Shown one piece after another: positions 37,979-43,819 of a stretch of 64,000 bases of DNA; the first letter of the stretch is position 1, and every line of letters starts with the position of its first letter. Origin of the DNA: Pseudomonas mosselii (GTDB lineage Bacteria > Pseudomonadota > Gammaproteobacteria > Pseudomonadales > Pseudomonadaceae); assembly GCF_019823065.1 (NCBI RefSeq), contig NZ_CP081966.1, forward strand, positions 124,001-188,000, given 5' to 3'. A model generated the notes under the pieces. It ran no database searches, was not told where the DNA came from, and worked only from the letters and a program-made list of their open reading frames with translations. Both the position numbers and the translations under genes were made by a program.

Positions 37979-38011
37979 GGCAGCTTTCATAGCATAGAAA
38001 CTGGTCTTGCC

Positions 38012-38123
38012 CTGTGGGAGCGGCCTTGTGTTGCGAAAGGGCCGCAGCGCGGCCCCAGGATCTCGAGTCTGACTAAAGATTGCCGGGGCTGCTGCGCAGC
38101 CCTTTCGCGACACAAGGCCGCTC
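38012..38123. repeat. REP-type inverted repeat pair
   Basis: Arms of about 40 bases (38012-38059 and 38083-38123) share the core of the pair at 8493-8612 (GCGACACAAGGCCGCT and GGCTGCTGCGCAGCCC) in the other order. It lies between the amidase and EAL genes, both on the plus strand. Confidence 0.82.
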
Positions 38124-39864: not shown

Positions 39865-41643
39865 TCAGACCGGTAAGGCCATGTAGAACTGCGTACCCTG
39901 CCCAGGCCGCGAGAATACGCCCATCCGCCCGCCATGCAGCTGGACGATCTCCTTGCACAGCGCCAGGCCCAGGCCGGCCCCGCCCTTCTTGCGCCCGACC
40001 TGGACGAACGGCTCGAAGATCCGCCCTTGCTGGCCGTAGGCGATGCCTTCGCCGTTGTCTTCGACACTGATGATCACCCGTTCGGCATGGCGCCGTGCGT
40101 GCAGGCGGATACGCCCTCCACTGCCGGTGTGGCGGATGGCGTTGTGCAGCAGGTTGTCGAGCACCCGGTCGAGCTGCGTGACGTCGGCCTGGATGCGCGG
40201 CAGTGGTGACTCCAGCTCGAGTATCAGCTCGATCTGCTTGCTCGAAGCCTGCTCGGCAGAACGTGCCCGGGCGCGCTCGAACAGTTCGTCGAGGGCGCAG
40301 GGAGCCAGCTCCAGCTTCTGCAGGCCGCTTTGATAGCGGGAGAAATTGAGCAGGTCGTTGATCAGCTGGGTAAGGCGCTGCATTTCTTCGGCGATGGTTT
40401 CGAGCAGATCGTTCTCCCGCGCCTCAGGCGGGAAACTGACCCGCTCGCGCAGCAGGCCGAAGGCCATGTGCATGCCAGTGACCGGCGTGCGCAATTCGTG
40501 GGAGGCGCGCAGCACGAATTCGCTGCGTACCCGCTCGAAAGCGCGCTGCTCGGTAACATCGTGCAGCACCATCACCGCGCCAAGGATCGGCCCCTCGGGG
40601 TGGCTGACCGGGGTCAGGCTGTAGGTCAGCAGGCGGGTTTCCTCATCCACCTCCAGACTCAGGTCGTCCGGTGGACGATCCAGGCTGCCGCCGCGCAGTA
40701 CCTGGCGCAGTTGCAGGTCCAGCTCCGGGCGTTGCAAGGCCTCGGCCAGGCCTGTGCCCCGGCGGCTCGGATCCCAGCCGAGTTGACGCTGGGCTACCGG
40801 ATTGAGGTGTTCCAGGCGGCCCTGGCGATCGATGATCAGCAGACCGTCATCGATGCTGTCGAGTACCGCCTGCAGGCGTTGCTGGCCGGCCTGCAGTTCA
40901 TCGATGTTGGTGGCCTGGTGTTTGCGCAGGGCATCGGCCATCAGGCCGAAGCGGCGGGTCAGCTGATTGAGCTCGGTGGCCTGGGTCACCGGCAGGGTGA
41001 CGTCGAAGTTGCCCTGGCCGATCTGGTCGGCGGCCTTGGCCAGTGCCTCGATCGGCTGGCCGAAGCGCCTGGCTATGTTGTGGGCAGTGATGAAACCTAG
41101 TACCAGCACAGTGAGGCCAACCATGCCGAGCATGCCACTGATGAGCAGGGCTTGATTGCGCGACTGCTCCTCGCTGCGGGTGATTTTTTCCAAGGCGTGG
41201 CGGTGGGACTCCAGCAGGTCCATGCGTACCTGGTTGAAGGCCGCTCCGAGGGGCTGCTCGACACCCATGCTGCGTGCAGGCGAGGGGCTCTGTCGATAGG
41301 CCTGGACAAATGCCTGGTAGTTGCTGGCGGCCTTGCTCAAGCCGGTGCGTTCTCCGCCTTGTTCCAGTCCCTGATCGAGGAGTGTCTGGAATTGGTCCTG
41401 CAGGGTGACGAGGGTATTCGGGGTGGTGTCCTCGTCGAGAATCAGATTCAGCTGTTCGCCCAGGTTCTGCCGCAACTTGAGGGCCAGCTCGAGCGTGTAG
41501 GTGGTGTCCTTGACGACGTGCTGCTGCAGGGCTGCCATCTGCAGCACGCTGAAAAGGCCCAGCAACAGGCCAAGCAAAGCCACGGTAACCAGTGCCGAGA
41601 TGCTCAGGAACAGCCGTGTGCGTAGCTTCATCGGCCATTTCAT
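39865..41643 (-). CDS. kinB: Sensor histidine kinase KinB
   Basis: Membrane kinase-phosphatase for AlgB. 592 residues: helix ~10-35, periplasmic helical sensor ~36-165, helix ~166-188, HAMP ~189-242, PAS ~255-370, HisKA with His382 (SHELRTP) and HATPase with NLLHNAIRHTG, DNGEGI and GLGLALC boxes. Complete. Its ATG overlaps the algB stop (ATGA), so it is translated after algB. In P. aeruginosa KinB dephosphorylates AlgB and holds back alginate production. Confidence 0.95.
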   Translation of the reverse strand: MKWPMKLRTRLFLSISALVTVALLGLLLGLFSVLQMAALQQHVVKDTTYTLELALKLRQNLGEQLNLILDEDTTPNTLVTLQDQFQTLLDQGLEQGGERTGLSKAASNYQAFVQAYRQSPSPARSMGVEQPLGAAFNQVRMDLLESHRHALEKITRSEEQSRNQALLISGMLGMVGLTVLVLGFITAHNIARRFGQPIEALAKAADQIGQGNFDVTLPVTQATELNQLTRRFGLMADALRKHQATNIDELQAGQQRLQAVLDSIDDGLLIIDRQGRLEHLNPVAQRQLGWDPSRRGTGLAEALQRPELDLQLRQVLRGGSLDRPPDDLSLEVDEETRLLTYSLTPVSHPEGPILGAVMVLHDVTEQRAFERVRSEFVLRASHELRTPVTGMHMAFGLLRERVSFPPEARENDLLETIAEEMQRLTQLINDLLNFSRYQSGLQKLELAPCALDELFERARARSAEQASSKQIELILELESPLPRIQADVTQLDRVLDNLLHNAIRHTGSGGRIRLHARRHAERVIISVEDNGEGIAYGQQGRIFEPFVQVGRKKGGAGLGLALCKEIVQLHGGRMGVFSRPGQGTQFYMALPV

Positions 41644-42968
41644 AAGTTGTATTGCTTGCGCTTGCGATAAAGGGTGGAGGCATCGATGCCCAGGGTCTTG
41701 GCTGCCTGGTCGAGGGTGTCGCTGGCAGCGAGCACCGCCCCGATATGGGCACGCTCAAGCTCATCCAGGCTCAGCGCCGCACCGACCCTGGGCGCGTTGC
41801 TGGCGGGTTGTTCGGCCATGCCCAGGTGGATGATCTCCACCCGCTCCTGGGGACAGATGATGCTGGCGCGCTCAATCACGTTGCGCAGTTCGCGAATGTT
41901 GCCCGGCCAGCGGTAGTTGAGCAGCGCCGTGCGTGCTTCATCGCTGAAGCCGCGGGCCGGGCGCGAGTACTCCTTGACGAAGCGGGCAAGGAAGCGGTCG
42001 GCCAGGGTCAGTATGTCCTCGCAGCGCTCGCGCAGCGGCGGCAGGTGCAGGGTGATGACGTTCAGTCGGTACAGCAAGTCTTCACGGAAGCGGTTCTCGC
42101 GGACCATCTCGTCGAGGTTGAGATTGGTGGCCGCGAGGATCCGCACATCCGCCCGGCGGGTGACCGGGTCGCCGACCCGCTCGTATTCCTTGTCCTGGAT
42201 GAAACGCAGCAGTTTTGGTTGTAGCGTGAGGGGAAAATCGCCGATTTCGTCAAGAAACAGCGTGCCGCCATCGGCCTGGCTGACTCGGCCCAGTGTGCTT
42301 TCACTGGCGCCGGTGAAGGCGCCGCGCGTGTGGCCGAACAGCTCGCTCTCCATCAGCTCGGCATTCAGCGAGGGGCAGTTGATGGTCACGCAGGCCTTGC
42401 GTGCCCGCTTGCTCCAGCCGTGGATGGCACGGGCCAGCTCGCCCTTGCCGGTGCCCGACTCGCCCAGGATGAGAATGTTGGCGTCGGTGGTCGCCACCTG
42501 GCGCGCGGTTTCCAGCACCGCCATCATCGCCGGGCTGTGGGAGTCCAGGCCGTCCTTGGGTTTGCGCACCTCGCCTTCGAGGGCCTCCAGGCCCGCCGAC
42601 AGTTGCCGGACCTCCAGCTGCTTGGCGGTAGCCAGGCGCAGCTGGTCGGGGCTGCAGGGTTTGACCAGGTAGTCTGCGGCGCCGGCCTGGATGGCATCCA
42701 CCGCAGTGTCGATGGCCGAGTGGGCGGTGACGATCACCACCCGCATCCACGGTGCCTGGATACGCATCTGTGCCAGTACGTCCAGGCCATTGTCCTCGCC
42801 CAGGCGCAGGTCGAGGAAACACAGGTCGAACACCTGGCGCTGCAAAAGTGCCTCGGCCTGAATCGCCCCCAAGACAATCGTACGCAGAGCGCTGTAGTCC
42901 CCCTGCACCAGCTGTTGTTCCTCGGCATGGCCTTGCTGCTCACCCTGGCGGCGGGCCTCTTCTACCAC
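41640..42968 (-). CDS. algB: AlgB, sigma-54 response regulator with missing receiver start
   Basis: Two-component activator. The frame is open for 442 codons, but similarity to AlgB begins only at residue ~37 (QAEALLQRQVFDLCFLDLR); the first ~42 AlgB residues, with the acidic pair VDDE and the true start, are absent. Codons 1-20 are antisense to the neighbouring gene at 42927. The phosphoacceptor Asp53 remains, as do the AAA domain (ILGESGTGKGE, GAFTGA) and the helix-turn-helix (DQAAKTLGIDASTLYRKRKQ). Translation might begin at GTG 42908, with GAGGAA nearby by chance. The frame is likely a deletion product; activity is doubtful for phosphorylation but possible for DNA binding. Confidence 0.75.
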   Translation of the reverse strand: MVEEARRQGEQQGHAEEQQLVQGDYSALRTIVLGAIQAEALLQRQVFDLCFLDLRLGEDNGLDVLAQMRIQAPWMRVVIVTAHSAIDTAVDAIQAGAADYLVKPCSPDQLRLATAKQLEVRQLSAGLEALEGEVRKPKDGLDSHSPAMMAVLETARQVATTDANILILGESGTGKGELARAIHGWSKRARKACVTINCPSLNAELMESELFGHTRGAFTGASESTLGRVSQADGGTLFLDEIGDFPLTLQPKLLRFIQDKEYERVGDPVTRRADVRILAATNLNLDEMVRENRFREDLLYRLNVITLHLPPLRERCEDILTLADRFLARFVKEYSRPARGFSDEARTALLNYRWPGNIRELRNVIERASIICPQERVEIIHLGMAEQPASNAPRVGAALSLDELERAHIGAVLAASDTLDQAAKTLGIDASTLYRKRKQYNL

Positions 42969-43142
42969 AGCTGGCAGACCGCCCGGCTGGCCGAGCAGGT
43001 GGCGGTGCAGACCGCGCTGTTGACGCAGTTACGGACAACCCATGCCTCTACCCTGGTCAAGGCCGCCGAGCCACTGCCCAGTGCCGACAATGCGCCTGCC
43101 GTTCTCGAGCGTGTTCAGCCCGAGGAGCGTTGGGTGTTCTGA
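42927..43142 (+). CDS. Small membrane protein, probably missing its N-terminus
   Basis: From ATG 42927 a 71-residue product begins with the hydrophobic run MALLLTLAAGLFYHSWQ, then a polar tail ending EERWVF. The frame is open upstream, with PLHQLLFLG just before the ATG reading as the start of the same hydrophobic segment, so the true start seems to lie in the part that is missing, where algB is also truncated. No ribosome site precedes the ATG. It is followed by the DUF1328 gene after 39 bases. Family unknown to me. Confidence 0.55.
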   Translation: MALLLTLAAGLFYHSWQTARLAEQVAVQTALLTQLRTTHASTLVKAAEPLPSADNAPAVLERVQPEERWVF

Positions 43143-43342
<200 letters not shown>

Positions 43343-43343
<1 letters not shown>

Positions 43344-43819
43344 TGACCATGAGCAGGATGCTCCCCAAGGCCCTGCTTGTCGCGCTGCTGCTGGGCAGCG
43401 GCGCGACAGCGCTGGCGGCCAATGACGGCCAGGTCCGGGCCAACCAGTTGCTTGGCTCGGACCCCGAATACCAGAAAACCTGGCAGAAGACCCTCAAGAA
43501 CGAGGAGCGCCTGCCCGAGTGGGTGATCAACCTCAGCGGCAGCTCGGCGCAGCAGATGTCTGCGGTAACCGAGGACGGCGACAAGTACTTGGTCGGCCCG
43601 CTGTGCGAGTCCGAAGGCAACTGTACCTACAAGCGCCTGATCGTGGCCTTCAGCTGGGACAAGGACGAAGCCTACGGCATGCTAGTGGAGGTGCCCGAAG
43701 GGCTGCCTGCCGACAAGTCACCTACCCGTCATGCCGACTACCGCTGGCTGGGCAAGCCGGATGACGGGATGAAGGCTCTGCTGCGGGAGCAGCTCAAGCG
43801 CGACCCGAACTGGTACTGA
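43343..43819 (+). CDS. Ivy-family inhibitor of C-type lysozyme
   Basis: Periplasmic lysozyme inhibitor, 158 residues. Signal peptide ending ALAAN; the body fits Ivy: a disulfide-closed loop CESEGNC (the inhibitory CKPHDC loop in E. coli Ivy), VAFSWDKDEAYGMLVEVPE, and the end YRWLGKPDDGMKALLREQL. Two starts three codons apart are possible (43343, 43349). P. aeruginosa has a second Ivy homologue (PA5481) at this same position. Confidence 0.88.

What the first reader, a model, noticed from the sequence alone, without database searches (positions are those of the whole stretch)
41640..43142. algB has lost the start of its receiver domain, likely by a deletion that also clipped the divergent gene
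Seen: AlgB similarity begins at QAEALLQRQVFDLC near 42860; codons before that are antisense to the plus-strand gene whose own start is missing. Known: AlgB of P. aeruginosa starts ~42 residues earlier, with the VDDE acidic pair needed for phosphorylation. Inferred: a deletion joined algB to its neighbour across the shared promoter region, leaving KinB without a normal partner and algB without its promoter. Such change could alter alginate, stress and quorum-linked control. It may also be an assembly error.
Basis: partly seen in the sequence, partly recalled or inferred. Interest (0 to 1): 0.75.

Follow-up and report, generated by a model that had tools for sequence, protein, structure and literature searches.

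The report
Regulator gene algB beheaded by deletion
In this Pseudomonas genome one deletion has removed the front of the biofilm and alginate regulator gene algB together with the promoter region it shares with a neighbouring gene, an apparently strain-level loss that nearly all relatives examined do not have.

Summary
AlgB homology starts at window 42860, codon 43 of the normal gene; upstream is antisense to a plus-strand ORF whose own start codon is gone. All 29 unnamed same-genus loci and all 80 named loci, four of them the same DNA, carry the missing 42 residues. In a 398-genome genus sample, 374 match the N-terminal region strongly, 22 hold only paralog-level matches, and 2 are damaged: this genome and G129, with a frame break. 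The window lacks 520 bp (L035 layout) or 1,336 bp (G195 layout, with an extra BON-domain gene). The lost block holds a sequence conserved in 80 relatives, both ribosome-binding sites and both start codons, and is nowhere else in the genome (positive control). A database AlgB with intact receiver (P0002) shares two substitutions absent from the 80 relatives, so the deletion looks recent. Likeliest result: a null or signal-blind AlgB, with kinB and a three-gene plus-strand cluster also cut off from their upstream promoter. An assembly error cannot be excluded without reads. It is a real but ordinary loss-of-function allele.

The parts
41640..42860 (-). algB remnant: codons 43-448 (rest of receiver, linker, AAA+ sigma-54 domain, Fis-type HTH), 406 residues and stop
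   Evidence: 99% identical over 1-406 to the two best named Pseudomonas loci; Pfam Sigma54_activat, AAA_lid_14, HTH_8
41640..42968 (-). open frame that fuses antisense of the divergent ORF (36 residues) to the algB remnant, 442 residues from GTG 42968
   Evidence: candidate starts between 42500 and 43028 have only weak ribosome-binding-site matches, 4 bases at best
42854..42861 (.). deletion junction; CGGCCTG (42854-42860) matches the algB side exactly and the divergent-gene side in 6 of 7 bases
   Evidence: L035 resumes 520 bp further on; L122 (G195) 1,336 bp further on
42861..43142 (+). divergent small ORF from codon 2 (93 residues); start codon and ribosome-binding site missing
   Evidence: tblastn match at E<=1e-5 in 31 of 80 named loci and in 164 of 398 genus genomes, this one included, at E<=0.001; L035 and most others printed begin ATGAAT after GGAGGAGCCGGC
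42591..42593 (-). codon for residue 132 of normal AlgB: Gly here, Arg in all relatives compared (receiver-AAA+ linker)
   Evidence: R in 80 of 80 named loci and in P0002, R in 29 of 29 G loci, invariant in the 24 proteins of A2
39865..41643 (-). kinB, intact 592 residues, overlapping the algB stop by 4 bp
   Evidence: Pfam KinB_sensor, HAMP, PAS, HisKA, HATPase_c; same length as in L035, L034, L038 and L054, 593 in L037
43182..43343 (+). DUF1328 small membrane protein gene, 39 bp after the divergent ORF
   Evidence: Pfam PF07043
43343..43819 (+). ivy-type lysozyme inhibitor gene, overlapping the DUF1328 stop
   Evidence: Pfam PF08816

Best explanation
A recent single deletion in this strain, probably by slippage or end joining at a short near-repeat, joined codon 43 of algB to codon 2 of the divergent small ORF. 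SHOWN: algB lacks residues 1-42, including the acidic residues D15, D16 and E17. The whole intergenic region, both ribosome-binding sites and both start codons are absent, while kinB, DUF1328 and ivy remain intact. INFERRED: AlgB is either not made or is made as a protein without a working receiver, so it can neither be phosphorylated nor answer KinB; kinB, overlapping algB and behind the same lost promoter, is under-expressed; the divergent ORF is not translated from its normal start; the two genes behind it lose any upstream promoter. Predicted phenotype: that of an algB null, possibly together with reduced kinB.
For: Full receiver in 29 of 29 unnamed and 80 of 80 named loci, 105 distinct. 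Clean collinear junction against L035 and G195. Missing block absent from the own genome, while the same search finds it in G123, G195 and G025. Receiver profile truncated. Block GCAACTTGCCCGAT upstream of algB is at least 95% conserved per column in the 80 named relatives, with no copy in the 64-kb window even with 3 substitutions in 17 bases. P0002, with intact receiver, shares C322 and I386, which 0 of 80 named relatives have. R132, invariant elsewhere, is G here, as relaxed constraint would allow.
Against: No reads, transcript or protein data. The frame stays open across the junction and the remnant shows no stops. Inferred changes on the window branch in algB are mostly synonymous (31 synonymous, 4 not), so decay is not visible. 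Both signs fit a recent event but also a remnant still in use. Promoter scans say little: no sigma-70-type site was found in 42700-43400, but shuffles give only 0.1 on average, and the AlgU-type scan also found nothing on the algB strand in L035, L034 or L054. The lost block is thus a promoter by position and conservation only.
Confidence: 0.76

Rival explanations
1. Assembly or culture artefact: the isolate carries the intact region and the contig lost it, or a laboratory passage selected the deletion.
For: An intact allele of apparently the same lineage exists in a public contig (P0002). A short 6-of-7 near-repeat sits at the junction.
Against: The block is found once in G123, the nearest genome with this layout, and 7 bp is far too short to collapse an assembly. 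The genome is in 2 contigs with completeness 100. G132 shows that this allele differs from P0002 elsewhere too. Selection during passage would still be a real deletion.
Confidence: 0.14
2. Gain of function: the remnant is expressed from a new start or a read-through transcript as AlgB with the receiver disabled, working independently of phosphorylation and blind to KinB.
For: AAA+ domain with GAFTGA and HTH intact. Open frame of 442 residues. Few amino-acid changes. The title of Ma et al. 1998, seen only in the reference list of PMC6932827, reports phosphorylation-independent AlgB activity in alginate production.
Against: No promoter-like site found upstream, though the scans are weak. Only weak ribosome-binding-site matches, 4 bases at best. 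BphP-AlgB signalling needs D59 in P. aeruginosa (PMC6932827, passage). A half receiver is likely to misfold: the model of the fused form has pLDDT 27-41 over residues 1-60, though both models are poor.
Confidence: 0.1

Closest known systems
[quoted passage not shown] aeruginosa)
   Same: Gene order algB-kinB, D59 region, AAA+ GAFTGA and Fis-type HTH kept; the dicistron is reported as conserved in all sequenced pseudomonads (PMC6932827, passage)
   Different: Residues 1-42 with the acidic set, start codon and promoter region are absent
Spontaneous algB suppressor mutants of a kinB deletion in P. aeruginosa PA14 (PMC6932827)
   Same: 8 of 12 suppressors had deletions or missense changes in algB (passage), so loss of algB arises readily under selection
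   Different: Here kinB is intact and the deletion also takes the shared promoter region and the neighbour's start
algB frame break in another Pseudomonas genome, G129
   Same: Single-contig genome with AlgB broken near codon 43
   Different: Frame break, not a deletion; a different genome of the one-per-species set; may be a sequencing error

Membership tests
AlgB (NtrC-family response regulator) | Sigma-54 AAA+ domain with GAFTGA and Fis-type HTH | tested here: met
   Pfam PF00158, PF25601, PF02954; GAFTGA in translation
AlgB (NtrC-family response regulator) | Complete receiver with acidic set D15/D16/E17 and acceptor D59 | tested here: not met
   D59 kept, but D15-D16-E17, invariant in the 24 proteins aligned (of 120 listed), absent; receiver profile positions 33-109 only
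AlgB (NtrC-family response regulator) | Lies directly upstream of kinB | tested here: met
   kinB 39865-41643 overlaps algB stop; KinB_sensor domain
AlgB (NtrC-family response regulator) | Phosphorylated by BphP or KinB and dephosphorylated by KinB | not testable with these tools
   needs protein assays
algB loss-of-function allele | No functional AlgB made | not testable with these tools
   promoter region and start absent in sequence, expression not measured

The most novel reading that the evidence does not exclude
The fusion is a working allele: AlgB with the first part of its receiver replaced by a 36-residue antisense-coded segment, plus R132G in the linker, is expressed and acts as a constitutive regulator that answers neither light nor KinB, so one deletion rewired the node.
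Probability: 0.07. Interest if true: 0.5.

Novelty: new member of a known kind. Interest (0 to 1): 0.22.

Why it matters
AlgB is described as the node joining light and quorum signals in P. aeruginosa and as part of a module present in all pseudomonads (PMC6932827, abstract as shown). A strain that has lost its receiver and shared promoter is a natural test of what the node is needed for, and a warning for anyone using this genome as a reference: the 442-residue frame looks normal by length alone.

Tried and rejected
Species-wide trait: not so for the genus; within the species nothing but P0002 (intact, and only presumed to be of the same species) could be seen. Deleted block moved elsewhere: no match in the own genome; the same query matched G123, G195 and G025 (run as positive control). 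BON-domain gene elsewhere in the own genome: only a 34% partial match, as in G123 and G025. Mucoid background as cause: a mucA-type RseA_C domain is present in an open frame in the own genome, so no evidence for a suppressor of a mucA break; the rest of mucA was not checked. Decay of kinB: window branch 19 nonsynonymous and 47 synonymous against 5 and 28 on the L035 branch, Fisher p 0.21, not significant. AlgU-type promoter at 9 of 11 or better: none in window 42700-43340, none on the algB strand in L035, L034 or L054, one in L038; on the divergent strand one, in L054, so the conserved block is not identified as AlgU-dependent. Structure prediction: both models have low confidence (mean pLDDT 50.4 and 55.6) and are used only as a hint. 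Naming the strain through its 65-kb plasmid: its first 12 kb matched P. aeruginosa, P. putida and other Pseudomonas plasmids at 100%, which does not name the host; not pursued. Literature: searches. No title or abstract start in those listings reports such an allele; they cover open-licence papers only, and passages were read from three papers (PMC6932827, PMC13001231, PMC5874919).

Full report
WHAT IS THERE. On the minus strand, 41640-42860 encodes AlgB from normal residue 43 to the stop: 406 residues, 99% identical to the two nearest named Pseudomonas loci. The frame runs on upstream, but as antisense of a plus-strand ORF, to a GTG at 42968. This makes a 442-residue frame that looks normal in length. 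The plus-strand ORF (42861-43142) is recognisable from its codon 2. Its ATG and ribosome-binding site are not there.

COMPARISON WITH RELATIVES. Four of the 29 are the same DNA as named loci, so these are 105 distinct loci. The 80 are the best of at least 585 candidate stretches, so they are the closest relatives, not a random draw. A genus survey with residues 2-82 over 398 genomes gave strong matches in 374 (weakest 2.1e-36, by reading the table; match coordinates were listed for only part of them) and weaker ones in 24. Of these 24, 22 hold only matches of 40-45% identity to the rest of AlgB, so they seem to have no ortholog; 5 of the 22 are less than 90% complete. One is this genome. One is G129, where a frame break lies near codon 43. 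So 374 of 376 sampled genomes with an AlgB ortholog appear to carry the region.

THE DELETION. Against L035 (P. peradeniyensis BW13M1, evidently the same genome as G123: same DNA) the window matches up to algB codon 43 and resumes at codon 2 of the divergent ORF. 520 bp are missing: 126 bp of algB, 391 bp between the genes and the ATG of the divergent ORF. Against G195, 1,336 bp are missing, because G195 has a gene with BON domains in between. Over stretches of different length G195 is slightly closer on the plus-gene side (96.1% against 95.4%) and L035/G123 on the algB side (91.1% against 90.5%). The own genome lacks that BON gene apart from a 34% partial match. Which layout the ancestor had is open. 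At the junction CGGCCTG matches the algB side fully and the divergent side (CGGCATG) in 6 of 7. In 674 positions of the L035 region 5 reach 6 of 7, the two at the junction included, so the near-repeat is suggestive at most. The missing block has no match elsewhere in the own genome, while the same query matches G123, G195 and G025.

WHAT WAS LOST. D15, D16 and E17, invariant in the 24 proteins aligned (chosen from the 120 listed), are gone; D59 is kept. Pfam sees receiver positions 33-109 of 111. The block GCAACTTGCCCGAT upstream of algB is at least 95% conserved in each column across the 80 named relatives and has no copy in the window with up to 3 substitutions in 17 bases. No sigma-70-type site was found in 42700-43400, where shuffles give 0.1 on average, and no AlgU-type site at 9 of 11 in 42700-43340. 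The AlgU-type scan also fails on the algB strand in three of four intact relatives, so the kind of promoter lost is unknown. Candidate starts left for the remnant have weak ribosome-binding-site matches, 4 bases at best. kinB starts inside the algB stop and is intact, with the KinB sensor domain. DUF1328 begins 39 bp after the divergent ORF, and ivy overlaps DUF1328, so these three plus-strand genes may share a promoter that is gone; this is inference.

AGE. P0002 (447 residues, intact receiver, from a public contig) differs from the remnant only at residue 132 and by a one-residue gap, and shares C322 and I386, which none of the 80 named relatives has. It is the nearest allele seen and is intact, so the deletion most likely postdates that split. 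Gly132, where 80 of 80 named and 29 of 29 unnamed loci have Arg, is the one substitution in the remnant since then; it fits relaxed constraint but is a single change. Changes inferred on the window branch in algB are 31 synonymous and 4 not, most of which may predate the deletion.

HOW IT MOST LIKELY WORKS. In P. [quoted passage not shown] By analogy this strain should behave as an algB null. The own genome has two AlgF-type matches and a phytochrome, so parts of the surrounding pathways exist. Structure prediction agrees weakly: the intact form shows beta1-alpha1 at residues 10-30, while the fused form has pLDDT 27-41 over residues 1-60 and no strands there, but both models are poor.

VERDICT. 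It is an ordinary, recent loss-of-function deletion of a known regulator, interesting mainly as a natural mutant and as a trap for annotation. An assembly or culture artefact stays possible until reads are mapped.

Noticed in passing
G129:C1:86652-87866 (L118): Another single-contig Pseudomonas genome has algB broken near codon 43, by a frame break; real or a sequencing error is not known.
   Followed up: partly
G000:C1:2062692-2063210 (L116): The own phytochrome kinase is followed by a CheY-like response regulator (matches 5ic5, RcpA and Rcp1 among others), so this genome seems to hold both a BphR-type partner and an algB locus, whereas PMC6932827 (passage) reports that none of the bphP-encoding bacteria in its tree has both BphR and AlgB.
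   Followed up: partly
L035, L054, L045, L051 versus L034, L038, L122: The distance between algB and the small divergent ORF is about 0.5-0.6 kb in some genomes and 1.3 kb in others; in G195 the extra DNA is a BON-domain gene, so this spot seems to lose or gain DNA repeatedly.
   Followed up: partly
window 38010-38123: A stretch of about 114 bp matches two places of L122 at 76-79%, one of them in both orientations, like a dispersed palindromic repeat.
   Followed up: no
G000:C2 (65,474 bp; first 12 kb is L124): The second contig is plasmid-like: its first 12 kb are 100% identical to P. aeruginosa and other Pseudomonas plasmids, several from human sources.
   Followed up: no
[quoted passage not shown] 5 of the 22 are less than 90% complete.
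   Followed up: partly
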